Below, one piece after another: positions 787 to 61,710 of a stretch of 64,000 nucleotides of DNA. The DNA comes from Tetragonia tetragonoides (lineage: Eukaryota; Streptophyta; Magnoliopsida; Caryophyllales; Aizoaceae): NCBI GenBank assembly GCA_038025085.1, contig CM076140.1, positions 1,986,501 to 2,050,500 of the forward strand, written 5' to 3'. Numbering within the stretch: position 1 is the stretch's first letter; each line of letters starts with the position of its first letter. The notes beneath the pieces are model-generated. The model did not search any database. It was not told the origin of the DNA and saw only the letters and a program-made list of their open reading frames with translations. The translations under genes were made by a program, and so were the position numbers.

Positions 787-973
787 TCTTCAAAAATGCA
801 ATCTCCATGGCCTCTTGAACTGCTTCTACTCACTACAATACCTGTTCTGTCACTGACAGCACTTGCAGTGCAGCACATTCAGAATCAGAATCAGAAATCA
901 AAATCAAGTCTTTTTCTCTCAATATCCCTCATTTTCTTCTCCCTCAAAGGAAAGTGCTAGGATAATTAAAGAG
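1..973. other. upstream region of the receptor-like gene, no gene recognised
   Basis: AT-rich sequence without a convincing coding region. A short open frame at 588-818 is mostly the translation of a CT microsatellite and shows no family resemblance. The stretch just before position 974 probably contains the promoter and 5' leader of the receptor-like gene, judged only from position and from the CT-rich tract typical of plant leaders. Nothing else was recognised in the first 580 bases. Confidence 0.5.
735..783. repeat. (CT)n microsatellite
   Basis: An uninterrupted CT dinucleotide run of about 49 bases, roughly 190 bases upstream of the receptor-like gene start. CT runs of this kind are common in plant core promoters and 5' leaders, so it may be transcribed as part of the leader; that is inference from position. 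Confidence 0.95.
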
Positions 974-3331
974 ATGCCCTCTTTAGTTTATGCCCTCTTA
1001 TTGACATTCTTTCTTACCCTGAGACAATCTGGTGCAATACCCAGTTCTCATTCTTTCAGAAAGTCAGAAATTAATCCTAAAGATAGCACTTTTGATCATC
1101 AATGCAATGAAACTTGTGGTAGCTTTCAAGTTTCTTTCCCATTTTATGTAAACAATGCTTCATGTGGGTGGTCACAACCTCCATCCCCTGACTCATTCCA
1201 ACTCTCTTGCCTCAACTCAACTTCCCTTTTCCTCAACATTGATTCCCAAAATTATAAAGTTCTTGAATTATTTCCTGATGGGGTTTTGGTGGATTTCCCT
1301 GGGTTTTCAAACATTTGTCGCCCTTATAATGACTTAAATTCATTTGGGTTTGGGGGGAATCACAACTTTGGGATATCAAGTGACAATGTGATTGGTTTAT
1401 ATGATTGTGAGGACTCTTCTTTGTGTAAGGCTAACTGTGAGGCTAATGACTTGCCTGGTTGTGACAGGAATGGGAATGGGATTGGCCCAGCTTGTTGCTA
1501 TCCCTTATCTGATCATAGTGTATGGCATATAGGGAATGGTTTTGATGTTTTTTCTAAGTATGAGTGCAGAGGATTCTCTTCCTGGGTTATCCCTAGAGGG
1601 ATGTCCTCAAGGAAAAGAGGGGTTAAATTGGAATGGGCTCTTCCTATGAACTCATCCAAAGATGCTTGTGATGTTAATGCACACAGTGTAAATGCCACCA
1701 CTGTTAAGCATGGGATAAGGTGTATATGTGATGATGGGTTTGTTGGTGATGGTTATGCCAAGGGAACTGGATGCTTGAAATGTGAGTGGCTTGGACAAAA
1801 CTCTTTTTTTTTTTTTTAAATTTTTTTATTATAATGGGGTAGATTATGTCTAATGGTGTCAAATCATTTAGTTTTAATGCAATCCCATAAGTTGTCACAG
1901 AATCAGGGCAAGAGACTATAAGGTTGTATCTATAGAACCTTGATACTGACTACATTAGCAAGAAACTGACATCTATGCTTTTCACTGCTTATCTGCATAC
2001 TTTTGGTCTTAAATTTCTGTCTCCTGTTTGCTTTAGTGTGAAGATGCTAATCAGACCCCTGAAAGTCAAAATTATAAGTCTTGTACTGAAGTCAAATTTG
2101 GTCTTTCTGAATTCTGCAGCATGCTTCCAAGATGGAAAGGGAGAATTTGATAAAGATTGTGACCCCAAGAAGCACAGCAAAAGGAAGATTATAATACTAG
2201 TTGGTATGGTGACTTACTATCATTTTAAGTAAAATAGGATTTAAAGAAGAACGTTTCCTTGGAACTGATCTTCATTTCTTTTTTTGCTAAACTGCAGGAA
2301 TTCTTACATCAGTTCTTGCCACTACCTCCTTGATTGCCCTTCTATGTCTGATAAAAAGGTCAGTGAAATCAGCCGGATATGGCTCTCATCACCAGCCCCA
2401 CTTTCGCAGCACCTTATCATTCCGAAAATCTTGTAACACCCGGATTTTCACCTTAAATGAACTAGACGAAGCCACCAAAGGATTCAACGAGGGCCAGAAA
2501 CTGATGGATGGCAGTAGCTGCAGTGTCTTCACCGGCACCCTCAAAGATGGGACCCACATTGCCGTCCAAAGGGTCCCATGCGAGAACGAACGTGACCTCA
2601 TGCAAGTTTTAGCTCGGATTGAGCTCTTATCCACTATCCTACACCGGCACTTGGCTCACATATTTGGTTGCTGCATCGACTCTGGTTACACTCCTATGGT
2701 GGTCTATGAACTCCCCGAAAATGGCACCCTTGAAAAGCATTTACACCGAGGAAAAGAAGATAAGGTTGGCCTTGATTGGTACAAGAGGTTAAGTATCTCT
2801 GCTCAAACTGCTAGTTTACTTGCTTTTCTACAACATGAGATTTCTCCTCCTGTTTTCCACCATGATCTCAAGTCTAGTAGTATATTCCTAGACCAAGAAC
2901 ACAATGTGAAGGTCGCCTGTTTCGGAATGCTGAGTGATATAAAGTTCTGTAGGAGTGATGTTTATGACCTGGGGTTAGTTCTGTTGGAGATAATCTCAGG
3001 CTCAAAACACACAGATACACCTACAGTGGCTCTGCAGAAGATTAGGGATGGTAAGTTAGAGGAGGTGTTAGACCCTCTTCTTTACTTCCATGAACAGCCC
3101 ACTTTTAGGAGAGAAGAGATTGAGATAGTTGCTGATATTGCCACAAGGTGCCTGCTATTTGGAGGGGATGGCAAGCTCGGCATGATAGATGTTGCTCGAC
3201 AACTCGTGCACATCATGAAGGGGAGCATTGATGGAGGTAGTAAAAGAGGGCCAGCATTGGAGGAGACCTTCTCAAATTCTAGTCTACTTCAGATGATTTC
3301 CATGTCTCCTGACTCCATTTATACTCCCTGA
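974..3331 (+). CDS. wall-associated-kinase-like receptor, probable pseudokinase
   Basis: Three exons are inferred: 974-1781, 2120-2203 and 2298-3331, giving 641 residues. The start at 974 is chosen because it begins a clean signal peptide (MPSLVYALLLTFF); the frame is also open upstream to an ATG at 863. After the signal comes a cysteine-rich GUB_WAK-type extracellular domain (from about residue 44, CNETCGSFQVSFPF) and a short EGF-like end (CICDDGFVGDGY). A membrane span lies at about 299-316, then a kinase-like domain. Its key residues are changed: the ATP-binding lysine is Gln388 (IAVQRV), HRD is HHD at 485-487, DFG is CFG at 505-507, and the activation loop is nearly absent, since CFGMLSDIKF runs straight into RSDVYDLG. 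The family best matching from memory is the 'probably inactive receptor-like kinase' group of Arabidopsis At2g46850. A scaffold or co-receptor role at the plasma membrane is likely; ligand and partner are unknown. Confidence 0.85.
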
Positions 3332-5174: not shown

Positions 5175-6820
5175 ATGAGTGACGAAGCAATAGCAAGTGA
5201 AGACGCTCAGATGATCCAGTCACCACGCCGACCTGCCCGGCTGAATGAAAGGATCCTCTCATCGCTATCCAGGAGATCAGTCGCTGCACATCCATGGCAT
5301 GATCTTGAGATTGGTATGTGCAATAATTTATCTAGTAATAACTCATTGTAATGTATGCTTGTGCAATAGATTTGGTTTGCTTACAAATGCAGTGAAACTA
5401 ATCACATTTAGCAAATTTCTGGTTGCAGGGCCTGAGGCACCCCGAATTGCCAATTGTGTAAGTTTTTTCCTAAAAAGTTTTACCTTTAACTAAAGACATG
5501 ATACAAAACCCTTTAAGGCTTAAGCATGTCTTGGGTATTAAACTAAACTATTCTGTTTCCTCTGTTTGATACAGGTTGTTGAGATCACAAAAGGAAGCAA
5601 AGTCAAATATGAACTTGACAAGAAAACAGGAATGATAAAGGTAACTAATCAGTTCCTACGTACAGCTAAAAGATCTTGACTTTCAAGACTTTTTTTTTTT
5701 TTTTTTTTTTTTCTGACAACGTTTCATGACCATTAATCTGCACGTTTTGCCCACTGGAATCCTGTAGGTTGATCGGATCTTATATTCATCGGTGGTCTAT
5801 CCTCATAACTATGGGTTTGTCCCTCGCACATTGTGCGATGACAACGATCCCCTTGATGTCTTAGTCCTCATGCAGGTAACTTGATTTGTAATCTAATGAT
5901 TCGCTTAACAGATTCAGTATTCTCCTTGTTCAAGATCATCCCAACAAGGAGAACATAATTTATTGAAAGTGTTAAGAAACCATTTTCATGCTCTGCTGAT
6001 CAGTATTTTGATTATGAACAGGAACCAGTCTGTCCTGGTTGTTTTCTGAGAATAAAGCCAATTGGATTAATGCCCATGATTGATCAGGTACAACAATGAT
6101 CTGAGCACATCCCCCAAATTACAGCTAATCTCACTTTCACTTACTCTTCTAATTAAGTACTAATGCGACAGGGCGAGGCAGATGACAAGATCATAGCAGT
6201 TTGTGCTGACGATCCTGAGTACAAGTATTACAATGATATTAAGGAGCTTCCTCCACACCGACTTGCTGAAATACGACGTTTCTTTGAGGACTGTATCCTT
6301 AAAACAAATCAAAGCAAATCAAGCCACATCCCCCAATCCCTAGGATACAAAGTTTCTTGGTTTTCATTAAGGTTTGATAATCTTGTTTCCTTTAACTAAC
6401 AACACAGACAAGAAGAACGAGAACAAGGAAGTTGCTGTCAATGACTTTCTGCCTGCACAAGCGGCCTTTGACGCTATCCAGCACTCAATGTAAGCGATTT
6501 ACCTCTTCTGTTTCCCTCAGTTAGAGATACATTACCTGAACCTAAAACTATAACATCAACGTGCTTCTAAACCAATTACGTCTTGCCATGTGTGTCACGG
6601 CTACACACGGCATGACAGGATTGGTTTAGTGGCGTTGCTGTTATGAACACTCAGGAACCACTGAACCAGTATTTCTGATGAAGCACAATGGTTCCTGAGT
6701 GCTACATATCGAACCCTCTCCCATTCTTGTATTCACCTCCTTATATATTAATGAGCTTTGTTGTCCATGGCGTGCAGGGATCTGTACGCAGAATACATTA
6801 TGCACACTCTGAGGAGGTAG
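5175..6820 (+). CDS. soluble inorganic pyrophosphatase (class I, plant cytosolic type)
   Basis: Eight exons: 5175-5313, 5429-5457, 5575-5640, 5768-5875, 6022-6087, 6172-6292, 6408-6489 and 6778-6820. Joined, they encode 217 residues, the usual length of plant soluble pyrophosphatases. The enzyme hydrolyses pyrophosphate to two phosphates with magnesium and so pulls biosynthetic reactions forward in the cytosol. The family signature [10 protein letters not shown] is intact, as are the basic region [14 protein letters not shown], the segment YPHNYGFVP, and [10 protein letters not shown] with [17 protein letters not shown] near the end. The protein starts [12 protein letters not shown], with no targeting peptide. 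All seven introns have GT-AG ends. The last intron (6490-6777) holds foldback DNA. The gene converges on DCL1. No defect was seen, and function is very likely intact. Confidence 0.95.
6567..6701. repeat. two adjacent foldback hairpins in the last pyrophosphatase intron
   Basis: Hairpin 1 spans 6567-6629: CTAAACCAAT at its left end is perfectly complementary to ATTGGTTTAG at its right end, with partly complementary inner arms (GCCATGTGTGT against ACACACGGCATG). Hairpin 2 spans 6648-6701 with perfect 13-base arms, CACTCAGGAACCA and TGGTTCCTGAGTG. A third pairing, TGGTTTAGTGG (6622-6632) with CCACTGAACCA (6657-6667), would compete with both. This could be a small MITE or a structured intronic RNA; neither is proven. 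Confidence 0.6.
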
Positions 6821-9388
6821 ATCGCATTCAGAAACCAGCTACATTGACATACAGTTTCTGAACCATTTTGGCCATTACAAGTCCTCTACAACGTTTATTT
6901 TACCGGCTTTAATCGAAAATTTCTAATATGAGCTAATAATTTCCATTACCCCCTTCAAAGTATCAGTAATCTCCTATGTATTTTTGTTTTTCTGATTTTC
7001 GTCTTGTTTTGGCGAGGAGGAACTCCATGTTTGCCAACAGAGACACGAAGAGATTGGAGGTTGTATTTGTGTTTTCCCTTTTTGTTCTTTCAAAAAACTC
7101 ACGTCATGGGATGTAATTTTTGTGGTGTTCGAAGCAAAATTCAATGACCAAGGGTTTCAGTTTAGCTTGTTGTTAATTCATGTTATAAACGCTACTCCTA
7201 GATACCAAACTTTATACTGAGTTTTTTTTTGTTCTTGTTTTTTAGGGTTCCTAGATACCTAACTCATCAGCATTTCAGTTACAATCAAATCTTTCCCTTC
7301 CGAGCCACAAATGCGACATTTACTCCCCTCTGTGAGCCCTTTGAGTTCACGCCTCACAGGCTCACAGCTAGGGAGTATAAAACTCCCAGAATGATGGTGT
7401 GCCATGGGCATGGCTCGAAACTCGAAAGCCACCCACATGCTAAAGATCTATAGCTTGCCTTTCGCATCCTGCCTAAAATTATTTAGCATGTGATGTGGTC
7501 TTCTTAAACATTGGAGATCAATATTAGCAGCTGCCAAAGCCTTGACAGGTGCATGCAGTGGCAACTATGAAATGGTATCGCTTGCCTGTTTTACCGTGAA
7601 AAGTATTGAGAGGGGCACTTTGATCAAGAAAGCAATATTTGTTCTCTCTCTCCTCAACTTCTCTCCCTTGTATTGCTGGGTGACATGCTCATTGATTCTT
7701 AAGATCTTATTTTTGTGACTTGACACTGGCAAGCGAATGCAATTCCAGCTTGTCACGGCTGACGTTCTAAGGGATGTAAAAAATGCAATAGAGCCCGCCG
7801 GAAATCAGAATTCTTATATTGATCAAGTTTACAATACATATTGCAGTAATTGCATCATACACTGCAAAGCTTGATAATTTCGGATAAAATAAATAAGAAT
7901 TCGGCTTATACCAGTGACCAGACCTGAGGCCGATGCAAAGAAGAAAAACTGTCAAATGTTGCATGTTATATTGCATCCTACATGTTTGTAAAATTGCTAC
8001 CTTTTCTGCCGAAGTGTCCTCCCTTTTCTTATGAAATCCGAAAAACCGAACAAAAAATCAAAGAGAGAAAGTAAACAGAGGGCCATTTTGGTGAAATTGC
8101 ATGCAAGTCTGGTTGAAATTCGGCTGAAGGTAGGAACTTGCAAACAAAATTGTCATAAAAGGAAGTATACAAGACTACTCTGTTCTTGGGCTGGTTGTTC
8201 ACGATATATTCGCTACTGAACACGCGAGTCTGAACATGACGTAGTGAGGGTGTCTCAGTCACCATTCACTTTACCCTCTTTTTGCATAGCAAAAAACGTA
8301 GTTACAAGACTACTCATGGACTAACATGGCAATCAGCAGACATAGAACAAGAAGACCCAAAGCACAATTATCCAGTGGGTCGTTGCTGGTACCAAGAAGG
8401 CCAAGGTCACACCGAGGGTTGCAGATCCTAATGTTGGGCAGAAGATTGATTCTTCAGGTACTAGCACCACAACTGTGGAGAGCCAGGACGCCCAAGCTAA
8501 AATATATATAGCTTGTGATTACAAGACACCTGGGCGCAGGGTGGATTTGAGTCCTGATGAATACTTGTACCCAGCCACCCTACATCTTCGACGCCTGTTG
8601 CCAATGATATATAGACCCCTGCTCACTCCAAAGTTAGAAGCCAGCGGCATCCTTAAGCGCAAACCCACAACTCATAGCCATGAAATGAAACACCCATGCA
8701 CCCAACTAAGAAAATCTCTTAGAATTGTCTAGGGCTTCCAGCTATAACTGGGAAGAGTTGGGGGGGGGGGGGGGGCCTCTTACTTTTTTCCTTCTATTGT
8801 TGTTTGGGATATATGTTGGATAACTTTCACTGATTTATGTTCTTTGTAAGATGGCCTTAATGAATTCACCAAATTTCTTCCCGCACAAATATCATAGAGA
8901 GAAGCATGAGGAGCAATTGTCGAATTCCACAAATTGCTGTATGAACAAAACAATCTGGAAAGAATCCAATGTTTAAGAGGAAAGGCGCAAAATATTGACT
9001 GGAAGGAAAAATGAAGTTCAGTAAAAAAAGCTCGATGTTGAAGCAACTGGAACCCGGATCTAACCATGTCCTCCGACCTCCAGAACAAAAAGATGAGCTA
9101 TCAATTAGGATCCATGCAAATAGAATCACTGTTACAGAATTTGCTTTGCGTTTTATTGTGACCTAAACATATTTTGACGGTTGATTGTAAGAGAATTACG
9201 TGCACTGAAAGAATACATTACATTTTTTTTGCTCGTCGAAAGAATACATTACATGATTAGAACTATTGGTCACCTAAAAATGCTGACATGCACCAAAACA
9301 GGGTATTATATGATCAGAAGCAAATGAGCTGCACAACAAACCCTGCTTGGTGTAATATGCACGAACGAGCATCATAACAAACTCACCT
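6821..9388. other. intergenic region between convergent pyrophosphatase and DCL1
   Basis: The first part presumably holds the pyrophosphatase 3' untranslated region and the last part that of DCL1. Several open frames of 60-100 codons (for example 8326-8732 on plus and 8780-9129 on minus) show no recognised family. A run of about 15 guanines starts near 8761. One A-tail insertion with a 17-bp target duplication is listed separately. Nothing else was recognised. Confidence 0.5.
9207..9254 (-). mobile_element. ultra-short A-tail retroposon with perfect 17-bp target duplication
   Basis: GAAAGAATACATTACAT is repeated exactly at 9207-9223 and 9238-9254. The 14 bases between them read, on the minus strand, GACGAGC followed by seven adenines. 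A perfect 17-bp duplication around such a short A-ended insert is strong evidence of a target-primed retroposition event that copied almost nothing but the tail. Confidence 0.65.
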
Positions 9389-12300
9389 CTACTGCGCCTC
9401 AGTCATGACTGATGAGTACCATCTGTTCAGAAGCTCCAATAGAAGAGCTGCAGCAGAATCTTTGGCCTTCTTAACACTTGGCATAGGCTCTCCAATGCAT
9501 TCATCAGTCCAACCTTTGTCGGTGGTGTTGACCCGAACAGCAAACGTAAACTTCTTGGCATGTGCAGGACCACCTTCAGTCACACACCTAAAAACAGCCC
9601 AAAGGCATCAAATGTGAACTTCTTTACCGGGATATGGGGAGGGGGGGGGGAGAGAGGGTGGCTGGGAAACTGATATCTAACCTGTAGAGTGGCATAGGCC
9701 AGTTTCTGCGTAAACAGATATCATTTAATGTCTGCCTTGTGAATGTCTGCCCACTGTTCTTTTTCTTCTTTCCACTCTCATCAGCTTTGTCTTTGGCCTC
9801 AGCTTGTTCTTTCTCCTTTATAGCAACCAGAGCGTTCCGTGCAGCTAATTTTTGCGCCATCTTCTTCTGTGGATTCTGAGCAACCCCAATCTGAACACCA
9901 TCTACGTAAACTTCAACAGTGGCTACATTCCCATCTCGAGTGGCCTTATATTCCAGACCTTCAGCTTGCTGCTGGCATCGTTCTTGCAGCTCTCTCACAG
10001 GATGCATCGGAAGTGTTTCTGGAGTAACCATTGGTTGCAATAAAGGCTCAAAGACCTAAGGTATTGCAAAAAAGAAATCTAAGCCCTCAAATATCCAAAC
10101 ACATTTAACCTTAAAGGCCTAACGTACTAACATGTATTAGACAAACTTTTAAGAAGTAGACTTACTCTCCAAACGATTGCAGTATCACGTCCACTATCAA
10201 GGAAAATGGCTCCAGCAATTGACTCAAAAATGTCACCAAGAACTTTGGGAGCCTTGCAATCTCCTAATCCAAAGGAATTAAATCCAGGTTTTGAGAGATC
10301 TTCTTTAACTTCACAAAATCCCGTATCTGCCGTGTATGACCAAATACCCCACCCCCACCCCCCCCCCCCCAAAACAAAAAAAAGGAAAAAGAAGAGAATT
10401 TTAGTGAGAACTTAGAACAAGGCTTTACGAGGTAATATCATTCAGCAGATGGCAAGGAGTTAATTTCTCCAATAATCCAAACATAAACTAAAAATAACAC
10501 CTGCTTTTCGAGGGAAGTAGATCCATGTCTTAAATGACACATGAAGCTTGTGTTTAACTGCAACTCGAGCAAAATTTTCATTGTTTACAGCTGCTGCACG
10601 CAAATCTGTCAAACGGCCAGGGGGCAAATCTGTATACAAGAAGAACAAGTGCCTAGTAATAAGATGATCCAATACTGCATCACCTACAAACTCTAGCCGC
10701 TGGTAGCAGGAGACCCCAGAAGATGGACGCGAAGCATGAGTAATTGCTTCAACCAGCAGCGTCCTATCCCTGAATTTAATCTTTAGAGCACCTTCTAAGG
10801 CATCAAAATCAACACTTCTAAGAACACCCTCTGGAACATTGGTCAGCCTCTTTGGACACTCGATCTCTTCAGGGTTGAACTCTATGTCAATCCCAATCCA
10901 TTTCATTAAGTGGTTCGCAGCACTCTTTCCACCTTCAACATAGTAAACTCCAATGAGCGATTCAACAACATCTGCCAATGTCTTGCTGGAAAGAACCCTG
11001 TAGGAACTTGAATCACTTTCAACTTCACCATCTTCCATTTCATCATCGTCAAAAGTATCAGCAGCTCTTTCTCTACTGGCCTGTGCAGCTGATCTTTCCT
11101 GATCAAACAAGGATGATTCCTCTTCCTTGCTGTCCTCATCAAACACTGGGAGAACACCAGGCGCAGCCCATCTAGATGGAGCAAAGCGATCAGCTTGGAT
11201 ATATGACTGAAGTCCTTTATTCAAAGCATGCTGGTACAACACCATATTGCTAACCATTTTCTGTCTCATACGTGTCAGCTGACCCTCATGTTTTTGAGGA
11301 TATTTAAGAAAAAGAAATTTACTAACTACCCATTTCAAATAAGCATCTCCCAGAAGCTCTGCTCTTTCATAACAGAACGTCTCTTGACATGAGGCTGCAG
11401 TCAATGCTTCCAGAATCTACATATTGGCAAGCGGTTAGATAGATTGAAACAGATAACAGTCACATCCATGTGAATTCTACTATGACAAGAAGATGAGAAA
11501 GTGACAGGACAACCTTTGTAGCAGGGATTGGATAGCTAATTATACTCTTAAGCTCAATAGCAAGTAACATGCTTTCCACTCGTCTCATTATTGATGGCAG
11601 TCTTTGGGCACCTCGGATAAGCATTCCAGGAAGTGGATGTACAAAACATAACTCAGCAGGTAGAAAAACATAATATGTTTTGTCAAGGGTCTCCTCAGAA
11701 TCACCTTCAGGTTCTACATAAGTCAAATACATTAGTCCATAAAGCTATGCCAGTTACAGAGAGAGAGTGATCTGGGAGTATCAACATACCCTCAGAATGT
11801 TCAAATCTTGGGGAAAGAAGATTCTTGCAATATGAAACACCACGTCCTCTCAGTAAAGGCTGCTGCTTGTATATCAATTCAACTCCATACCTGTTGCCAG
11901 TGACGAAAACCATGATGCCATATGCACCTTTTATTGTGCAGGAGGAAGCAAAAGCTTATCCAATCTGTAAAGTAGACTATCTGTCAAGCAAAACTTTAAC
12001 ACCTGACAGAGTCACGTCTTCCTTCCCAGATTGGATAAGGCGCTTCTGCTTCTCCATGCACAACTTGGTGTGCATTTCGGCAAGCGCGTTCTTGCGTTAG
12101 AATGACAACAATGAAGAATGGAACTAATTGAAATGACAGTGGAATGTAACAAACAGAAAAGAAGGAAATACAACTTATTTAAGTTGGGTAAGTTCTCAGT
12201 TAAAAGAGCTTTTAAAAAAGAAATGTGTAGTATGAAGAAGAAGAGAAAGAAACAACTGCAGATGTTTAAAAGAGCCATACTTCTGCTTGTAGTAGTCTGC

Positions 12301-15300
12301 ATATGAACTATACTCCAAAGGACCAAGGTAACCTTCTTTCCTGGGGAATGAGTTCTCAGCAGTCATATCATAACGTACAGAATCCACATAGAACCTTTTT
12401 CCAGAGTGAGCAGCAGTCACAATTTTACCCACCAAGTCTTCTGCACTGATACAAGAATCAGCCAACATCAATTTGCCTTCAAATATTTCCGGCTTGCTAT
12501 CCAACATGTAATCCCGAACGGGAATCAAGCCAGAAGCCTTGACAACATCATATTGTGCAATTGCTCCTCTGATACCATAAGTAGGATGAGACTTTTGTCC
12601 AAATGCCATACCATAACGCAGCTTTCCAAACCCATACTCTCTTCTATCCCCACCCAGACCCCGCTCATTTGTTCCCAAGTAAACATCTGGTCGGGCCTTT
12701 TGTAGCGGATTGTTCCATGCTTCTGTCTTTGTTATATTCTCAATAAAATTCCAGTTAACTTCTTCTAAAGGATCTAAAGATTTATCGCCAACCATAGGAA
12801 CAAATAAATAAGCCTTTGCGGGATCCCACAGAGTTGTTTGAGGTTCAACATCCACATCTAGTACAATGCTCATCAGTCTCACATGGAAACTCTTCAGGGA
12901 TGCTAGCTGCCCATAGCCAAAATCAAAAGTCACTTCAACAGCCAGTAACTAGAACTCTGAGCCATAAGTTCAATATAAAAAGAAAAGAATTTTTAGACTA
13001 AACTCTGAAGAACGTAAACCATACCTGCCTCTCTGTGATATCTATTGACCCCCGAAAGACGAGAGATACCTTACACTTCATGGTTCGAGCGATAAAGAGA
13101 TCCATCGACATCGATAACACCTAAATTCAAAAACAAAAAAAAATTAATAGAGGATACTCATTCTAAAAGCAACAAGAAACAGAAGAAAGTTTCACAAAGA
13201 TACCTCTGCATCCAGCTCACTGCCAAACAATACTGAAAAATCTGAGACTTGGGTCAAGAAAGGATCCTGTGAGAATCCAATGTTTTCCCAATTCACAGAA
13301 TACATATAGAGACGAAATGATTTGGAATGGTCACAAAAATCTCTCCCAGACAAAATCCATTCCCCCTGTGCGATACAAAGTAAAGACAGTTAAATCCAAT
13401 GCATATTTCTGTACATCCAAAGAAAAGGGTGCAATGCACTCCTGCACAACACAGCATGAATAGGCACCCAATGAACCAAGAAGATAGGAAAGTCAGTGGC
13501 CTAATGCAACCCCATATGAAATTGCAGACCCATTATGGATACCTCGTAAGATATGGCTCCAAACCAAACTTCCCATCATCGTCAATTTGTCAACCTATTA
13601 TTTATGGTGTATTCTCTAAATCTCAAATCATCACTTGTGATTCAATTCAAGGACTTCTTAACATAAAATTTTCCTACTGTATTTTCCAATTGTCATAGTT
13701 TCATATCAAGACTTCTCAATTACAGGAGGACTTTACCATAATAACAATCACCTTTTGCCTTAAGGGGAGGGAAGGGTCCTAGGGTTGAACACCATATATT
13801 ATCTACCTACACACACAATCCACACGCACTATCAAATCTACCCCATTCCCTATGAAGGCTCAACTTGGAAGATTTTAATTTCCTGACGAGGAAGATGAAG
13901 TTAAGAGAGACAAAACAGGCAACCAAGAAGGATATTATGGGTGGAGGAACATCCGAACAGGTGATATTAGGCCAGGAGTTTACGCATATGACTAGAAGTG
14001 AGTAGAACAGGTATAAAATTTTTAAATCCTCATAAAAAATAATAAATAATAAATAATAAAATAAAAAAACAGAATAATGTGGTTAATTTACATTTTATGA
14101 CACGTATGACAGAAGATGGTTCTTCACCAAGAAAAAATAATATGAGAACATGCTTAAAATACTAACCCGAAGGACAGAGGCTACGCCTTCTGGATAAAAT
14201 TCTCTGTGTCTGGCAGTTCCTGGGAGTGGGATTCCTTCATCATTCTGCTCAGTCTTTTCACCATCTTCTCCACTTCCCTTGTCAGGCAAGAGCATGTCAG
14301 TAAAAGCTCCCATCTCATGGAGCTTCTTGCAAGCAGCCAAGCAAACAGCCTGCACATTAAAACCACAAGCAAATCAACATATTGAACACAATGTCATCAA
14401 AGTAGAGACAATTAAAACAACGAAGCACAAATTAAGGTCAATGGCCAGGGAACCTGCTGTGCAAGTCGCATTGAACTGCAAACTGGACCCTCAAGCTTTT
14501 CAAATGGAGCATTGCAAGGGAGTTGAAGCCTACAAGAATATTCTGTGTCCCCACTTGGCTTCTCATGCCGCTCCATGATAAATTCAGGACGAAGTATTGA
14601 ATATCTGGAAGAAAGATTCAAGCAATAGAACAGCATGTTGGGTTTCCGACCAAAAGATGTTTGTTCTATAAGCCAGCTCAAACTAAAATATACACAAGCA
14701 AAACTAAAACTGCACCTGTCACTGGGTAGCTGTGAACAGTAAAAATGGACAAGGCCTACAGCAGAATTCAAGCTCACAGTAGCACCAGTTGAAGCCACTT
14801 GATACACTGAACCTGGGCCAGTATCCACTGATATTAATCTTGAAGTACCCTTAAAATGACTTACATCAGTCCTCTCAATTGCTTCTCTCCGCAAAGTTTC
14901 TTCACTATTTCTGGCGTTCTTTAAGAAAGTTTCATGTGACACGTTACCCCTAACCAGAAAAATAAAGGAGTTTAGTCCCTCTTTCCCTTCCCCTTTTTCG
15001 AAAAAGTGGCAAAAAAACAGTCAAGCTGAACATGAAAAGCAGCCCAAATAGATACCTCTCAACCATCAAGAGATAATCTGACCCTGGCTTTCTTGCACGA
15101 CCCCTTGATTGAATGTAAGCTAAAACAGTTTTTGCAAGATCAAAGCGAATAACCACATTGCATTGCCGAATATCAAGCCCTTCCTCAGCCACACTAGTGG
15201 CAACTAGCAAAGTTACCTGGAAAAAATTGCAACAGGTTCAGCAAGTGGTCGTTCAGAAAACTAGTATGAGGACAAGGAGTCCTCAAAAGAAAACAAAGGG

Positions 15301-18300
15301 AAATAACATCACAAATCGCCCCAATGGCGTTGCACGTCACTAAGAGGCAGCCCTCTAAAAGCCCCAAAAGCCTTGGCCCAAAGAGAGGCCAAATACACCA
15401 CCCAATCCCAAACAAAGTTTAGAGGACTAAAGGCCCCATCAAAAATCCGGCAGTTCCGTTCCAACCACACGCACCAAAAGATGGCAAAAAATGCACACCG
15501 CCATAGCATCCTATTCTCCTTGCCCCTTCCAAGGCCAAGATATTGAGCCTGGATGAGCTGAGTGATCGTAAGGGGCAAATGAAGCATTCCGCACCAATGC
15601 TTAATAGTCGTCTCCAAAGAGACTGTGTAAAATGACAATGCAAGAATAAGTGCACACAAGCCTTGCTAGCCTCAGTACAGGCCCGGGGACAAGGATCAAC
15701 CAGGCCTCATTCGCTGAACCATATCATGAGTGTTCACCTTACCCAATGCCATAGTTCACACAAGAGCGCGCAGTTTAAGGGGAGCCTTTGACTTCCAAAT
15801 GAAATTGGCTACAGGAAGAGGGGGGCAAATCAAAACTGTCCCTAGCCCCAGCCGGCAAATCACAAAAAAAAAAAAAAAAAAAAAAAAAAACCTAAATCAC
15901 ATAGCAACATATGTGCCTCAAAGAAAGGCAGAAAGCATACACGACCGTCTCGGAATTCGGCAATTGTATCCTGCATCTGAGATGTCCGCATTTCCTGACT
16001 ATTATTATGCCCAATCAAACTTGCACACTTGACAAAACCCAAAGATGGAAGCTCAGCAAAAACCTGTATATTTGTGAGAAAAGAGAAAGAATCATAAACG
16101 TTTGCGTAAAAGAAATCGTAAATTTTTTACGTAAAAGGAACTTGACAATTGATCACTGGAAGGAAGTTATGGTGCACTGAACCTTTGGAAGAACCAAAGC
16201 GGCAACAACTCTCTCCACAAATATGATCGCACGGAAATCCTCAGTGTGTTGATAGCTCATAAGTATTTTTATCAGTGATTGCACCTTAGGGGTGACCTTT
16301 CCATCAGCTACAGCAGCTCCAATGATGACATCAACATGTTCTCCACCAGAGACAACTGTAACACAATTAGATTTAGGAAAAAGAACAATTAAACTATATT
16401 AAAAGCTACTAATGCCAAGCAGCGCTAAAATCACTATCCTCTTAACACCCTCATACCAAGGTCGATCGTAAGAGTCCACATCACCCTATATGATTCCACA
16501 TCACTCTATATTCCAATGTCAAGATTGGATAAGGATACTTGCCAACGTATAATTGAAGACAAATTCATGAAAACTTATCATAACTTGTCAAAATATCAGG
16601 AGAATTTGCTCATTGTGCAAAATATCATGAGAATTTGCTCATTGCGCAAAATATCATGAGAATTTGCAAAATATCATGATACTTTGCAAAATATCATGAT
16701 AATTTGCTCATTGCGGAAGATATCATGAGAATTTGCTTATTGTGCAAAATATCATGAGAAATTGCAAAATATCATGAGAATTTGCTCATTGCGCAAAATA
16801 TCATGAGAAATTGCTCATTGTGCAAACATCATGAGAATTTGCAAAATATCATGATAATTTGAAATATCATGAGAATTTGCAAAATATCATGAGAATTTGC
16901 TCATTATGCAAAATATCATGATAATTTGAAAATACCATGAGAATTTGCAAAAAATCATGAGAGTTTGCTCATTGTGCAAAATATCATGATAATTTGAAAA
17001 TATCAGGAGAAATTGCAAAATATCATGAGCATTTGAAAATATCATGAGAATTTGCAAAATATCATGAGAATTTGATAATTTGAAAATATCATGATAATTT
17101 GAAAATATCATGAGAAATTGCAAAATATCATGAGAATTTGATAATTTGAAAATTTCATGAGAATTTGAAAATATCATGAGAATTTGAAAATATCATGAGA
17201 ATTTGAAAATATCATGAGAATTTGCACAATATCATGAGAATTTGATAATTTGAAAATATCATGAGAATTTGAAAATATCATGAGAATTTGCAAAATATCA
17301 TGAGAATTTCAAATTTGAAAATATCATGATAATTTGAAAATATCATGAGAAATTGCAAAATATCATGAGAATTTGATAATTTGAAAATATCATGATAATT
17401 TGAAAATATCATGAGAATTTGCTCATTGTGCAAAATATCATGATAATTTGAAAATATCATTAGAATTTGCAAAATATCATGAGAATTTGCTCATGGTGCA
17501 AAATATCATGATAATTTGAAAATATCATGAGAATTGCAAAATATCATGATAATTTGAAAATATCATGATGATTTGAAAATATCATGAGAAATTGCAAAAT
17601 ATCATGAGAATTTGCTCATGGTGCAAAATATCACGAGAATTTGCAAAATATCATGAGAATTTGCTCATTGTGCAAAATATCATGATAATTTGAAAATATC
17701 ATGAGAATTTGCTCTTTGTGCAAAATATCATGAGAATATCATGAGAATTTGCTCATTGCATGAGAATTTGCTCAATGTGCAAAATATGATGAGAATTTGC
17801 TCACTGTGCAAAATATCATGAGAATTTGCTCACTGTGCAAAATATCATGAGAATGAGCAAATGTGCAAAATATCATGAGAATTTGCTCATTGTGCAGAGA
17901 CCTCCTATGGAGATTATATCAAAATGTGTAACAAGCTAATTCATAATCAAATCAAGAAAATTTCGATATATTAGAGAAACAATCAAGTAATAGCCACCAT
18001 CTAATATATGAAACAGAAATATTTTTCAAGTTCCTCTCGCAAAAAGCTATGACAGCCAATTATAACAAAGCAAGCTCCAGAAATTAGTAACCATCAAAAG
18101 AGTCACAATTTCACCTAAAAAAAAGTAGATAAGAGAGGAAAAACAAGAATGGCATAAGAGGTGCTTGCATATATCAGTGATGACAATACTCAGTACTCAC
18201 CATGACAATCAGAAAGTTCTCCCTCTTCAATATCATCGACACTATCTTGAGGGCAGCCACTATCTTCTTTTATACCATTTGCATCCTTGTTAGAAGCAGC

Positions 18301-21300
18301 TCCCTCTGATAACTGGCATTGTACTAGTGCAACAACTTTGCTCAAATACGATTCTTGAAACTTGACATCCAGTTGGTAGTTTGCCCTCTCATCATTTTGT
18401 AAGGCTACTAAAAAGGATTGTGCAACCTGCAGATGACATAATCGAGCCAAGGAAAGTAGTTACATCATAACCAAGAATCAAAACACCAAAAATATAGATG
18501 TCTATAAACTGCACATCATTGAACCTTGTAAGCACACCACTGTCCCAATTCTCCAAGTGCATAGTTAATGGCCCTTAATTTTTGAATTAAATTTGCAGCC
18601 CCATCACTTTCAGTTCTTTCTGAGACACCATAAACCTGACGTAGTTCTTCCCTGGCTCCTGCGTCTCTAGCTCCCATGAACTGCCATTTGCCTTTTCTTT
18701 TACTCGCTCGTGCAGCTTCTTCAACTGCTAGCTCCATCTGTTTGATTTGGTCATGAAGAGAGCACAACGTCGCTGCTTTGTCATACTCCACAACGATTTC
18801 TGATGGCGTCGGAACATGTTTTTCCAGCTCTTTACGGTCTTTTATTGTACAAACTATGGAGTCCAGCTTGGTCTCAAGATTACGTATCTTTATTGCACAG
18901 TCTACTTGGCTGGAAACACCTACTCCATAAAAATAAAAACAAAAAAGTGGTCCACATTAAGCACGCACCAGTAATTCAGCATACAATATAATAAAGGTAT
19001 GAGGGAAAATTTATAGCTCCAGTGCTGGACAGCAGATGAAGTTAAAGAAATTACTTCAATAATCATGGATCACAAGAAACATAGGTCTTAGGTGTATACC
19101 CTTCAAATTAACAGGAGAAGCAGTCATCCCAAAAACAGTAGGTCTCTTCTCCTTTGGAGTTGTGTGATAGAATTCAGACATCACCAATGAATAAGGATGT
19201 TTCTTCACAGCATGGTGACACTCATCCAGAATAAGGAGGTGTATGCATTCCATTTTAATTATGCTATGCCTCAGAATGTTCAACAATATTTGTGCAGTCA
19301 TAACTAAAACCTGCAGGAAGGAAAAATCTATCATGGTAAAAATCCAATATCAAGCATAAAAGAGATATCAACGAACATAGCAAGCAGAACACTTCCCAGA
19401 GGGTTTTCAGGCTATAAATGTACTCAATAGCAAACCTGTCTTATTCTGAGAGAAAAGTACATACATTAAAGAAAAGAAATTATAAATATTTAAACCAACA
19501 CTGATGACGTACAGTGCTTCAGAGCACTGAATGTCACTTGTTAGCACGGTGATATATATCCAGCTAGTGAAGACACGCACCACACATGCTAGAACAGTCA
19601 AACCAGAGGAGATAAGAGAAGATGGCAACGCTTGCACCACTTGAACATGCAAAGTTGTACAATATTGTACATAAAGGTCTAGTAAAATGAGATCTAATCA
19701 TAGGAACCCAAGTAAGACTAAACATAAATATTCCAAGAAACTGCATGAAGTTTCACATTAAGTCAGCTATTATCAACTTTCCTTCAGCATAGTCTGTAAC
19801 CATAGTATGTAAAACCCAAAAAGGAAGACCAATAACATCTACATTTACGTATTATAGCTGCTCAGACCTTTTTGCAAGAAAGGGTCAGAAGAGGTGAGAA
19901 GAAAACCTAGTCAGGTTCTAACATGTGACCTGCTCAAAACAGTATAACTTTGACAAGAGAAACATCGGTTGTGTTTGGTGGAAAGCTTACAACAGATAAT
20001 AAAACTAGATTTTTCTTAATTATGAAGTACGAACACATTTCACAGTTCTAAATCCTTATCTCGGAATATTTTAACTTGTTAATGAAATCCGCATCATCTG
20101 AATATTATGTTTGGCAGAAACAAAAGCTTATACTTGGAACTAAATTTTTTTCCTAAACAAGATGGGATTTTTCAATGCCAGATGCCTGCCTCAGCATGTG
20201 TTTTTACTTATTACTGAAATCCCTTTTTGGGAATCCAGAAGAATATAATAGTTTCAAGACCGCAGTGACGCATAATATAATTGTCTGCTTTATTTTATTT
20301 TCTTTCCGTTGGTTTTTATTTGGGGGGGGGGGGGGGAGGGGGGGGGGAGACAATTGGGCAATTGATGTACAGACAGAATGTTCACTTACAAACTATTCCA
20401 TTAATGGTCTTTCTCTAAAAAATAAAATCCATAAATGGCCTCTGCATTACCTTCCAAATTAACATAGCCATGGTACATTAACATGAAAACAATTTGATAG
20501 GATAGCAAAAGAAACCTAGCTAGAACACATCTGTAATTGATAATCATCTATCATCACTATCTAAACCCAGAACCATTTCAAAGAATAGCATCTTAGTAGT
20601 GTCTAACAGCATGTGAATAACAAGGAAAACATGAAATGTATAATGTTCGCGAAAAGGTAAGTATAGAAATCCAAATGGTTACTTTGAAAAGCCCTCAGTA
20701 GAGGACTCAAATAGGTAAGAAGAGTAACAAAAGAAAAATCGTATCTGAGATACTTCATGCTTAAGAGTCCACCGCATATACTTCATGCATACTAATTAAT
20801 TTATTACCATTTATACCCTAAACAAACTTCATCCTGATAGGACACCAACTAGCTTAGTTATCAAAAGCATCCTCATGTCTAAATTTTGGCAGCATGTATT
20901 ATCAAGCAGCCAACAGCTCAAGGAAAGGCAGACTAAAATGGTTACCTCCTTAGTATCAAACTCGCGTTGCCACCTTCGAGTGTCCCAGAAATCTTGACCC
21001 ATCTCACCACAGTAATGGCCTACATCGTATCCAGTTTGCTCACGTATAACTTCTGCTTGCTGCACATTTCAGAAGAACACAATTTATGTTACCGTTTTAA
21101 CATTACAATCCTAATATCTAAAGCAACCAAATATAAACCAATTAGTCAACTTTTTTACCTGATAAACCAGCGGAACCTTAGGCACAAGAAATACAGCGAG
21201 TGATTTCTTGTTTTGCTGTTGCAATCTGTGACGAATGCTTTTGATAAGTAGAACAGCAATTAGAGTTTTCCCAGCTCCGGTTTCCAAAAAGGCAATAGTA

Positions 21301-22314
21301 TTCCTTTCCTTAGCTTGCTCAAGTACATCCAACTGATACTGTCGTGCCTGCTCCTCCAATTTCTTCTCCTTAACACCAACCTCATTCTTCTCCACCCTCC
21401 CATTACCTTCTTGGTTCTTCTCAAAATCCATCTTATTCCCATCTCTAATTCGCTCCGCTTCATACGAACCCGAACGATACACAAATTCCTTTGACCCGGC
21501 TTTTCCCTCTCCCAATAAACTTTTGCTTCTCTCTCTCTCTCCACTCCCTATCCCTACTCTCTCTTCTACCATTATAATGCTCTCTTCTCCTACTACTACT
21601 CAAATCTCTATCCCTATCTCTCTCTCTCCTCCCATTTTCCTCCCCTTCTCTACACCTCTTCTTTCCATTACTCCCCCAATCTCTACCTCCACCACCACTC
21701 TCCCCTCGACTTGAATACGACCTCTCAACTCTATAACCGCTACTAACCCGAGCCCTTTTGCCATTCCTCTCTTCACCACCCCTGTCCCTATCATCTAAAT
21801 TTCCAATCTTCGGGGTTCCATTAGGTTTATTACCACAATCAAGCAAACCCTTATTTTGATCAGCACACAAATTGGATACACACAAATTACCATTACCCCC
21901 ATTATCAATATCCATTTTGGGATCATCATTATTAATAACAACAAGTGGAATTCCTACCTCGTCAATATCACAATTCTGATTCTCAACATGCATTTCACAA
22001 ATGCTACTAATATCAGTAGGAGAAACAATACTATTAATATTATTATCATCCATACCGTTATTATTATTATTATTTGTAATACTACAAGGCAAACCGGTAC
22101 CGTTTTTTATGCTGTTGAGAATTTGATCAATTCCACCGAACAAGCTCTGATCATCATCAACACCAGTAATTTGATTTCCAAAATCAGCAACGAAATCGCC
22201 AATGAGCTCACAAGGGATGATGTCATCTTCCTCACAAGCATCGAGCCAATAAGTGGGTGGTCTTGAAATTGAATCGTCGGAACCCTTATTATCAATATTA
22301 TTTCCAACCTCCAT
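9389..22314 (-). CDS. DCL1: DICER-LIKE 1, microRNA-processing ribonuclease III
   Basis: Twenty exons (minus strand, high to low): 22314-21159, 21059-20946, 19310-19100, 18919-18525, 18426-18201, 16355-16183, 16063-15941, 15216-15056, 14949-14716, 14604-14454, 14349-14167, 13365-13204, 13120-13025, 12906-12281, 11890-11790, 11713-11514, 11416-10501, 10326-10166, 10055-9682, 9587-9389. The product (about 1,980 residues) cuts primary microRNA hairpins in the nucleus. Seen in order: an acidic N-terminus ([13 protein letters not shown]), an Arg/Ser/Asp-rich region, helicase motifs ([36 protein letters not shown]), a PAZ region, RNase IIIa ([13 protein letters not shown]), RNase IIIb ([13 protein letters not shown]) and two dsRNA-binding domains. 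Exon number matches Arabidopsis as recalled. Oddities: the summed exons leave one extra base because exon 1 changes frame near 21530, and exons 17-18 carry a compensated shift. Likely regulated by miR162 and by an intron-14 hairpin. Confidence 0.95.
11916..12082 (-). ncRNA. miR838-like primary microRNA hairpin in DCL1 intron 14
   Basis: Inside intron 14 (12280-11891), in the sense of the DCL1 transcript, a 5' arm at 12082-12027 folds back on a 3' arm at 11967-11916 with a loop of about 59 bases. Matching blocks include CTTATCCAATCTG, TTGTGCA and ATGCAC, with a few mismatches and a 2-base bulge: the imperfect stem typical of plant microRNA precursors. Arabidopsis is known to express miR838 from intron 14 of its own DCL1. 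The 3' arm around 11953-11933 reads TTTTGCTTC...TGCACA, which resembles the recalled miR838 sequence at both ends. Processing by DCL1 itself would remove the intron before splicing and truncate the mRNA, giving negative feedback. Expression and the exact mature product are not shown. Confidence 0.7.
13111..13215 (-). promoter_or_regulatory. miR162 target site split by DCL1 intron 12
   Basis: Exon 12 ends with CTGGATGCAGAG (13215-13204) and exon 13 begins with GTGTTATCGA (13120-13111). Joined in the mRNA they form a 22-base site that pairs with miR162 along its length except for one bulged or mismatched base near the junction. The Arabidopsis DCL1 target also spans the exon 12/13 junction, so position and sequence are conserved. 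Only spliced mRNA carries the site, so feedback acts on mature transcript. Confidence 0.9.
15309..15840 (-). mobile_element. LINE (non-LTR retrotransposon) relic in DCL1 intron 7
   Basis: On the DCL1 sense strand this intron segment encodes scraps of the zinc-binding region that ends plant LINE reverse transcriptases: [19 protein letters not shown] near 15820-15765, [16 protein letters not shown] near 15655-15610, and [19 protein letters not shown] in another frame near 15490-15430. Frame jumps and stops show it is dead. A run of about 27 adenines (plus strand 15864-15890) lies beside it. No target duplication could be assigned with confidence. Confidence 0.75.
16588..17897. repeat. 1.3-kb AT-rich minisatellite in DCL1 intron 5
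   Basis: Dozens of degenerate copies of a roughly 19-base unit, AAATATCATGAGAATTTGC, some extended by about 10 bases (TCATTGTGCA). Many copies contain TATCATGATA or ATCATGA, which are self-complementary or nearly so, so transcripts could pair unit to unit. It fills most of the 1.84-kb intron between exons 5 and 6. Open frames inside it, such as 17177-16887 on minus, are only the translated repeat. Confidence 0.95.
19311..20945 (-). other. DCL1 intron 2, no internal gene
   Basis: A 1.6-kb intron between the DCL1 exons ending at 20946 and starting at 19310. It contains a guanine-rich tract at about 20322-20350 on the plus strand. No coding family, transposon ends or hairpin were recognised; short frames in it have no family resemblance. 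Confidence 0.6.
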
Positions 22315-57810: not shown

Positions 57811-57965
57811 GCTCACATCACACGTCACAAGGCAGAACCTCCTCGATTTTCCCAGGTTTTCATATACGCCAAAAAAGAAAAAAATGAAAAAGAAAAAAGA
57901 AATCCCAAATCCAACGGTCACCAACTCACCACACACTGTCAGTTCACTCCCACTCAATCCAACCG

Positions 57966-58020
57966 TTCAAGACTCTTCTAGAAAACTCTCCTCTCCCTCC
58001 AAAACCTCTCTTTATAAAAG
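57966..58020 (+). promoter_or_regulatory. heat-shock-element-like array and TATA box of the Hsp70 gene
   Basis: TTCAAGACTCTTCTAGAA at 57966-57983 has the spacing TTC-nn-GAA-nn-TTC-nn-GAA with a single mismatch (GAC), the binding pattern of heat-shock factors. A TATA box, TTTATAAAAG, follows at 58011-58020, about 135 bases upstream of the start codon. The arrangement suggests that heat or plastid stress raises expression; that is inferred from motif and position. Confidence 0.7.
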
Positions 58021-58154
58021 TACCACTACAACTTCTCTCTCCTCGCTTATTCATCTCTCTCATCTTCATCTTGTCTTTGTCATCACCAACTTCAGAAACA
58101 AAAGAAAAGAAAACCTCCATAACCAAACCAGAAAACCTAGAGTTCCGTACAATC

Positions 58155-61710
<3,556 letters not shown>

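What the first reader, a model, noticed from the sequence alone, without database searches (positions are those of the whole stretch)
11916..12082. Self-targeting microRNA hairpin (miR838-like) inside DCL1 intron 14
The intron between exons 14 and 15 folds into a stem of about 50 bases with arms 12082-12027 and 11967-11916. Arabidopsis encodes miR838 in the same-numbered intron, and the 3' arm here (11953-11933) starts TTTTGCTTC and ends in TGCACA-type sequence like miR838. The miRNA machinery would then cut its own enzyme's pre-mRNA. I recall miR838 as poorly conserved outside Brassicaceae, so an orthologous hairpin in this plant would show an ancient feedback loop whose stem survives while the mature sequence drifts.
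Basis: partly seen in the sequence, partly recalled or inferred. Interest (0 to 1): 0.88.

Follow-up and report, generated by a model that had tools for sequence, protein, structure and literature searches.

The report
Ancient self-cutting hairpin inside DCL1
In a plant related to quinoa and carnations, the gene for the enzyme that makes microRNAs carries in its 14th intron a sequence predicted to fold into a very stable RNA hairpin, at the same place as the Arabidopsis miR838 hairpin and likely inherited from the same ancestor; the enzyme would then cut its own unspliced message, and this feedback loop would be far older than the literature assumes.

Summary
The hairpin is real. Window 12082-11916 (minus strand) folds at -84.3 kcal/mol (z -9.9; 0 of 200 shuffles) and is the strongest GC-corrected fold of 2128 stretches scanned. 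It lies in intron 14 (12280-11891) of DICER-LIKE1, with a miR162-type site across exons 12/13. The plant belongs to Caryophyllales (SH-aLRT 100).

Likeness to mature miR838 alone is not significant: 27 other places in the window do as well, and Rfam's MIR838 model gives 19 bits against a cut-off of 190. Shared ancestry rests on position plus conserved sequence. Reading frames on public plant contigs that run from intron 14 into exon 15 fit this intron's 3' region in 7 of 19 cases, against 0-1 of 19 for each of the gene's 18 other introns; MIR838-bearing and legume-like sequences are among the seven. The genome search found two copies of the hairpin, differing only at the loop tip.

The window's own DCL1 copy has four frame-breaking indels; the copy on C14 is open for 1994 codons. 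Cutting by DCL1 is inferred: no small-RNA data could be seen.

The parts
9389..22314 (-). DICER-LIKE1 gene copy, 20 exons and 19 introns (ATG at 22314; 3' end approximate)
   Evidence: phmmer to PDB 7eld in three frames; splice sites read
11891..12280 (-). Intron 14 (GT...AG), between exon 14 (ends ...YADYYKQ-K) and exon 15 (YGVELIYKQQP...)
   Evidence: retained, it would bring a stop at about 12198
11916..12082 (-). Hairpin, likely orthologous to the Arabidopsis MIR838 hairpin
   Evidence: fold -84.3 kcal/mol, z -9.9; pairs listed; same fold in the C14 copy, -85.8 kcal/mol, z -9.7
11933..11953 (-). Predicted miR838-like 3p strand TTTTGCTTCCTCCTGCACAAT (ends may differ by 1-2 bases)
   Evidence: 20 of 21 bases paired with 12064-12044; the genome search with up to 2 mismatches found it only at the two DCL1 copies
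12044..12064 (-). Predicted partner (star) arm GTTGTGCATGGAGAAGCAGAA
   Evidence: pairing; aligns to Rfam MIR838 5' arm GTTGTGCAAGAATGAGAAGCA-AAGC
12065..12082 (-). Lower stem, 5' strand (18 bases below the predicted duplex)
11916..11932 (-). Lower stem, 3' strand; holds GGTGCATATGGC (11928-11917), which recurs in legume-like sequences
11934..11940 (-). TGCACAA, ending 43 nt before the end of the intron; the same word can be read at about 41-51 nt in MIR838-bearing and legume-like sequences
11991..11999 (-). Terminal loop; with the loop-closing base 12000 it holds all three differences between the two genome copies of the hairpin
12097..12101 (-). CTAAC, best branch-point-like word in the last 250 bases of the intron (A at 12098), just outside the 5' base of the hairpin (inferred)
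13204..13215 (-). 5' half of the miR162-type site (CTGGATGCAGAG) at the end of exon 12; anchors the intron numbering
   Evidence: exon 12/13 location of the site from PMC4833791; miR162 letters recalled
13111..13120 (-). 3' half of the miR162-type site (GTGTTATCGA) at the start of exon 13
21497..21541 (-). Two frame-breaking differences in exon 1 (2-base insertion near 21541, 1-base deletion near 21497) relative to the C14 copy
10312..10538 (-). Two more frame-breaking differences: 1-base insertion near 10538 (exon 17), 4-base deletion near 10312 (exon 18)

Best explanation
Intron 14 of this plant's DCL1 gene holds a sequence that folds into a predicted 63-pair hairpin at the same place as Arabidopsis MIR838, likely inherited from a common ancestor, and DCL1 is predicted to cut it out of the unspliced transcript, so that the enzyme would destroy part of its own pre-mRNA. 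Shown by calls: the intron, the computed fold and its excess over shuffles, two genomic copies that differ only at the loop tip, and recurrence of the hairpin's 3' base at a similar distance from the 3' splice site in MIR838-bearing and legume-like sequences. Inferred: when DCL1 is plentiful it cuts the hairpin about 17-18 bases above its base, before the splicing machinery acts, and releases a miR838-like duplex. The two pre-mRNA pieces cannot be spliced and are lost, so DCL1 falls. When DCL1 is scarce the intron is spliced and DCL1 rises. The released small RNA need not have a target: a genome search with up to two mismatches, both strands, found its sequence only at the two hairpins.
For: Fold z -9.9 and -9.7 in the second copy; lowest of 2128 stretches. 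Intron 14 by count, anchored on the miR162-type site at exon 12/13. About 17-18 bases below the predicted duplex, and 20 of 21 bases paired in it, suit DCL1 geometry (the DCL1 rule is recalled). Intron-reading frames on plant contigs: 7 of 19 tested fit the 3' region of this intron at 15 bits or more, against 0-1 of 19 for each of 18 decoy introns. Rfam's MIR838 3' arm fits two of those 19 frames at 66.2 and 41.8 bits, which shows a MIR838 lying directly upstream of exon 15, and fits the window's own frame at 17.4 bits, p 0.02, with TGCACAA 43 nt from the intron end. All 3 differences between the two copies of the hairpin lie in 12000-11992; 0 in the other 157 bases, against 158 of 5845 in the other 18 introns, p 0.014, the tip having been set apart after seeing the data. 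The mechanism is proposed in print for Arabidopsis, and Medicago intron 14 is reported to fold alike and to match three 21-nt small RNAs (PMC4833791 passages).
Against: No small-RNA, degradome or RACE data could be seen for this plant. Mature-sequence likeness is not significant alone (27 other places as good). Rfam MIR838 scores 19 of 190 bits and aligns out of register. The two-arm alignment does not single out the hairpin's sense strand. The whole-hairpin difference rate between copies (3 of 167) is not lower than in other introns (p 0.63). Twelve of 19 intron-reading frames miss the threshold, among them MIR838-bearing P0156, and one of the seven that pass (P0139) matches without TGCACAA. 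Legume-like P0126 and P0138, which fit the window, do not fit Rfam's MIR838 arm itself (p 0.55 and 0.41). Frames P0131, P0132, P0139 and P0140, whose exon 15 is one residue from Nepenthes (Caryophyllales) and Nelumbo, show no TGCACAA (P0132 and P0140 are too short to tell). Salvia is reported to have no precursor-like stem-loop in any of its 19 DCL1 introns (PMC4429486), and a grape prediction found no match (passage cut off, PMC2717091). The window's own DCL1 frame is broken. In Medicago the miR838 homologue was not among the small RNAs and 5' RACE failed.
Confidence: 0.68

Rival explanations
1. The hairpin is a splicing element first: it sits between the branch point and the 3' splice site and folds out, bringing the two within reach; any cutting by DCL1 is incidental.
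For: The last 60 bases of intron 14 have no good branch-point word (best 6.0 on a simple hand-made scale, 18th of 19 introns), while a full CTAAC lies at 12098, 16 bases outside the hairpin's 5' base; the 3' splice site is 25 bases outside its 3' base, so the folded-out distance is about 40. TGCACAA stays about 41-51 nt from the splice site in other plants.
Against: Intron 17 also lacks a near branch word (5.0), so the test is weak; a CTAAC by chance in 390 bases is common. A bridging stem would not need a miRNA-like duplex.
Confidence: 0.15
2. A separately evolved intronic hairpin (convergent with MIR838, as Physcomitrella miR1047 is), with the same feedback use.
For: Weak direct likeness to MIR838; intronic DCL1 hairpins are described as independent in moss, intron 7 (PMC4429486 passage).
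Against: Same intron, same arm, TGCACAA at a similar distance from the splice site, and linking legume-like sequences that fit the window's 3' region.
Confidence: 0.1
3. A recent transposon-type (MITE) inverted repeat that happened to land in the intron.
For: Long inverted repeats in plant introns are often MITEs (recalled).
Against: The genome searches found two copies in 752.8 Mb, both in DCL1 (the DNA search skips very common words); its 3' base recurs at the orthologous place in other plants.
Confidence: 0.02
4. In the window copy the hairpin is a relic of a dying gene: the DCL1 frame is broken and the stem is intact only because the break is recent.
For: Four frame-breaking indels against the open C14 copy; first stop after 284 codons.
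Against: Exons still differ by only 0-2.5% from the C14 copy; three of the four indels are at a GA repeat or are single bases and could be assembly errors (no reads seen). The C14 copy carries the same hairpin.
Confidence: 0.3

Closest known systems
Arabidopsis MIR838 in DCL1 intron 14 (Rfam RF03974; Rajagopalan et al. 2006, seen only as cited)
   Same: Same gene, same intron number, long foldback ending just before exon 15, TGCACA(A) at the base of the 3' arm, GCC:GGC in the lower stem, GTTGTGCA..GAGAAGCA on the 5' arm
   Different: Far below Rfam's cut-off (19 of 190 bits); upper stem and loop unalike; lower stem shorter; no small-RNA proof here
Medicago truncatula DCL1 intron 14 hairpin (PMC4833791, passages)
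   Same: Same intron, hairpin with a miR838-like stretch; three 21-nt small RNAs match it; intron retention brings an early stop
   Different: A legume; the small RNAs were not the miR838 homologue. Its sequence (a supplement) could not be compared here
Physcomitrella miR1047 in DCL1 intron 7 (as described in PMC4429486 and PMC4053937, passages)
   Same: A hairpin in a DCL1 intron, proposed to lower DCL1 mRNA when cut out
   Different: Different intron and sequence; described as an independent origin
Small RNAs named miR838 by sequence likeness in other plants (e.g. ghr-miR838a/b predicted in cotton ESTs, PMC3210780; others in the listing)
   Same: Name and a pyrimidine-rich sequence
   Different: Predicted by likeness; the passage seen does not place them in DCL1 intron 14, and one search shows how easily such likeness arises

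Membership tests
MIR838 (orthologous locus) | Lies in intron 14 of DCL1, two introns after the miR162 site | tested here: met
   with the published location
MIR838 (orthologous locus) | Stable long foldback in the sense strand | tested here: met
   z -9.9, 0 of 200 shuffles
MIR838 (orthologous locus) | miR838-like sequence on the 3' arm | tested here: inconclusive
   not significant as a free search; 17.4 bits, p 0.02 in the exon-15 frame; indirect support through other plants
Rfam RF03974 as curated | Score at or above the gathering cut-off of 190 bits | tested here: not met
   19.0 bits, E 0.41, out of register; hence not filed as RF03974
Plant microRNA locus (annotation criteria, recalled) | Precise 20-22-nt reads from both arms | not testable with these tools
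   no small-RNA reads available
Plant microRNA locus (annotation criteria, recalled) | Foldback under 300 nt with at most a few unpaired bases in the duplex | tested here: met
   167 bases; one unpaired base on the 3p strand and one on its partner
DCL1 self-regulation by pre-mRNA cutting | Cut DCL1 pre-mRNA fragments in the plant | not testable with these tools
   no transcript-end data

The most novel reading that the evidence does not exclude
The intron-14 hairpin of DCL1 is an old core-eudicot device, present before rosids and Caryophyllales parted, that ties splicing and self-destruction together: it spans the stretch between branch point and 3' splice site, so the same folded stem that brings the splice partners together is the one DCL1 cuts. 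In this plant the window's DCL1 copy has lost its protein frame and may live on as a non-coding MIR838-type gene that loads and titrates the DCL1 made by the C14 copy.
Probability: 0.2. Interest if true: 0.8.

Novelty: new member of a known kind. Interest (0 to 1): 0.6.

Why it matters
Passages seen here call miR838 non-conserved (PMC4833791, which also describes the Medicago hairpin) or seemingly Arabidopsis-specific (PMC4053937). A hairpin at the same intron position in Caryophyllales, with linking sequences in legume-like plants, would make the DCL1 self-cutting loop an old control of the whole microRNA system in core eudicots and testable in any of them. What appears to be kept is the foldback, its base and its distance from the splice site rather than a target site, which fits an RNA that matters by being cut, not by what it silences.

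Tried and rejected
Mature miR838 as proof: dropped, because 28 distinct places in the window, the arm itself included, score at least as well (23 for the A. lyrata form), and a pyrimidine tract at 12250-12225 in the same intron scores better. Rfam at gathering cut-offs: no hit in the window; at E 10 MIR838 is second of four matches, out of register. Two-arm alignment to the Rfam consensus under four scorings: with two scorings the hairpin's antisense strand ranks first and its sense strand third; with a third both strands tie for first with two other places; with the strictest the antisense strand ranks sixth and the sense strand is not among the first eight. So this was not used as proof; a looser scoring was worse. 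A first pass of the intron-reading test without fixed spacing, 30 frames, gave the same leaders but left P0126 (p 0.076) and P0156 (p 0.21) unremarkable. Scans of viral and prokaryote contigs for plant DCL1 found none. Two of the hairpin's open frames: no Pfam match. Assembly-quality control on the HSP70 gene: frames change with introns, so it told nothing, and the genome search meant for it did not complete. MITE origin rejected.

Full report
What is there. The minus strand at 12082-11916 is predicted to form one long foldback: outermost pair 12082/11916, 63 pairs, nine helices, a 9-base loop at 11999-11991. Its energy is -84.3 kcal/mol against a shuffled mean of -46.0 (z -9.9, 0 of 200). In a scan of 2128 stretches of 180 bases over both strands of the window, a minus-strand stretch over this hairpin has the lowest energy after correction for GC.

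Where it lies. phmmer of the three minus-strand frames (stops as X) against the PDB places the exons on Arabidopsis DCL1 (7eld). Splice sites give 20 exons and 19 introns. The twelfth exon junction reads CTGGATGCAGAG|GTGTTATCGA, the miR162-type site (letters recalled) that the literature puts at exon 12/13 (PMC4833791, passages), so the hairpin intron, 12280-11891, is number 14. A transcript that keeps it would stop after 27 further codons, at about 12198.

Which plant. The genome (G000, 752.8 Mb, 27 contigs) is unnamed. The closest named DCL1 proteins are Chenopodium quinoa 88%, Heliosperma 87%, Ancistrocladus 85% (120 of 457 matches listed). In a quick-method tree of 35 DCL1 proteins the plant's intact copy falls with quinoa, Heliosperma and two unnamed sequences (SH-aLRT 100), inside a group that adds Nepenthes, Ancistrocladus and Drosera (100). 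It is thus a Caryophyllales plant, far from Brassicaceae.

Two copies. The genome search found the hairpin twice, on C2 (the window) and C14 (98%), and DCL1 exon 14 twice, plus a weak hit elsewhere (42% over 64 aa). The hairpins differ at three bases: two in the loop and one, 12000, in the loop-closing pair, which is predicted to stay paired in both. None of the other 157 bases differ, against 158 of 5845 in the other 18 introns (p 0.014; the loop tip was set apart after seeing the data). The hairpin as a whole, 3 of 167, is not slower than the introns (p 0.63). The window copy has four frame-breaking indels against C14 (+2 near 21541, -1 near 21497, +1 near 10538, -4 near 10312) and a first stop after 284 codons; the C14 copy is open for 1994 codons. 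Whether this is gene decay or assembly error cannot be told without reads.

Is it MIR838? Direct likeness is weak. The mature ath-miR838 (letters seen in PMC9495863) aligns to the 3' arm with gaps, TTTTGCTTC..C.TCCTGCACA, but 27 other distinct places in the window score as well. Rfam MIR838 gives 19 bits against a cut-off of 190, and aligns out of register. The consensus arms printed there align in register as GTTGTGCATG---GAGAAGCAGAAGC to GTTGTGCAAGAATGAGAAGCA-AAGC and GCTTTTGCTTC--C-TCCTGCACAA to GCTTTT-CTTCTACTTCTTGCACAA. In a two-arm scan the sense strand of the hairpin ranks third, tied first, third and outside the first eight under four scorings. That is suggestive, not proof.

The deciding test used public proteins. 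ORFs called on plant contigs sometimes read from the end of intron 14 straight into exon 15. Two searches returned 47 different short proteins of this kind (33 of 33 candidates, 47 of 4333, which include those 33; sequences). I kept the 19 of 47 with at least 16 residues before the exon-15 motif and scored their possible codons against the 61-base stretch before the 3' splice site of every intron of the window gene. Seven of 19 reach 15 bits for intron 14 (P0121, P0126, P0136, P0138, P0139, P0154, P0159); for each of the other 18 introns it is 0 or 1 of 19. Six of the seven carry, in the expected register, words compatible with TGCACAA and/or GGTGCATATGG (P0126 with one change); P0139 matches upstream of TGCACAA only and may be chance. 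The other twelve, P0156, P0145 and P0122 among them, fall short. Scored instead against Rfam's MIR838 3' arm (100 shuffles each), P0159 gives 66.2 and P0156 41.8 bits, so they carry MIR838 itself directly upstream of exon 15 (that MIR838 in Rfam is a Brassicaceae family is recalled). Four more reach p 0.04 or less: P0121, P0136 and P0154 in register, and P0135 at another part of the arm. P0126 (p 0.55) and P0138 (p 0.41) do not. The window's own frame gives 17.4 bits (p 0.02) with TGCACAA 43 nt from the intron end; in the others it can be read at about 41-51 nt. By exon-15 identity to the 103 of 120 listed DCL1 proteins in which the exon was found, P0126, P0121, P0136 and P0138 look like legumes, and P0154 resembles Lupinus and an unnamed protein at two differences (an inference from 33 residues). 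So the 3' base of the hairpin recurs in MIR838-bearing, legume-like and Caryophyllales DCL1 at a similar place. It is not universal: several frames, some with an exon 15 one residue from Nepenthes and Nelumbo, do not show it.

How it would work. By the Arabidopsis model (as told in PMC4833791 and PMC12825306, passages), DCL1 cutting the intron yields non-productive pieces of its own transcript. Here 17-18 bases of lower stem lie below the predicted duplex, which has 20 of 21 bases paired. The genome search for the predicted 3p strand, both strands and up to two mismatches, found only the two hairpins, which fits action in cis; looser plant target rules were not searched. The best branch-point word in the last 250 bases is a CTAAC at 12098, outside the 5' base, while the last 60 bases have no good one; if that is the branch point, the folded stem spans branch point and 3' splice site. 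This is a hypothesis: intron 17 looks similar.

What is known. Ten held papers join miR838, DCL1 and intron 14. Passages of six were read: miR838 is called non-conserved or seemingly Arabidopsis-specific; a miR838-like hairpin with three non-homologous 21-nt RNAs is described for Medicago; none was predicted in Salvia's 19 introns. Small RNAs named miR838 by likeness are listed for other plants (listing; cotton and Boechera passages), not placed in DCL1 in what I saw. Searches on Caryophyllales crops (15 of 7,272 listed, none of the 15 with miR838, so it says little), eudicots and the intron by name, together, listed no title or abstract reporting this hairpin in Caryophyllales; most subscription papers are not held.

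Verdict. Orthology to the MIR838 locus is likely (about 0.85). Processing by DCL1 is inferred from structure and from the Arabidopsis model, and untested here.

Noticed in passing
window 21541, 21497, 10538, 10312: Four frame-breaking indels in exons 1, 17 and 18 of the window's DCL1 copy; the copy on G000:C14 is open. Gene decay or assembly error.
   Followed up: partly
window 16589-17880: Intron 5 of DCL1 holds an AT-rich array of ATATCATGA-type repeats with many palindromes; the stretch differs in length between the two copies.
   Followed up: no
window 6541-6720 and 7321-7500 (minus strand): Second and fifth lowest GC-corrected fold energies of the window scan, downstream of DCL1; nature unknown.
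   Followed up: no
window 12096-11980 (minus strand): The 5' arm and loop are open in one frame for 39 codons (ALAEMHTKLCMEKQKRLIQSGKED...), with no Pfam match.
   Followed up: partly
P0122 (exon 15 identical to Persea americana): An intron-reading frame compatible with AATGGTGCATATTGG before exon 15, 12.8 bits, p 0.07: a hint, too weak to claim, that the lower stem could reach magnoliids.
   Followed up: partly
P0123, P0125, P0133 (exon 15 like Alnus, Carya, Quercus): Short frames VHLAIG / MHLAIG / MAIG before exon 15, reminiscent of GTGCAT..GGCAA in legume-like ones; too short for the test and unremarkable.
   Followed up: partly
window 857-3328 and 57888-61700 (plus strand): A wall-associated-kinase-type receptor kinase gene and an HSP70 gene.
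   Followed up: no
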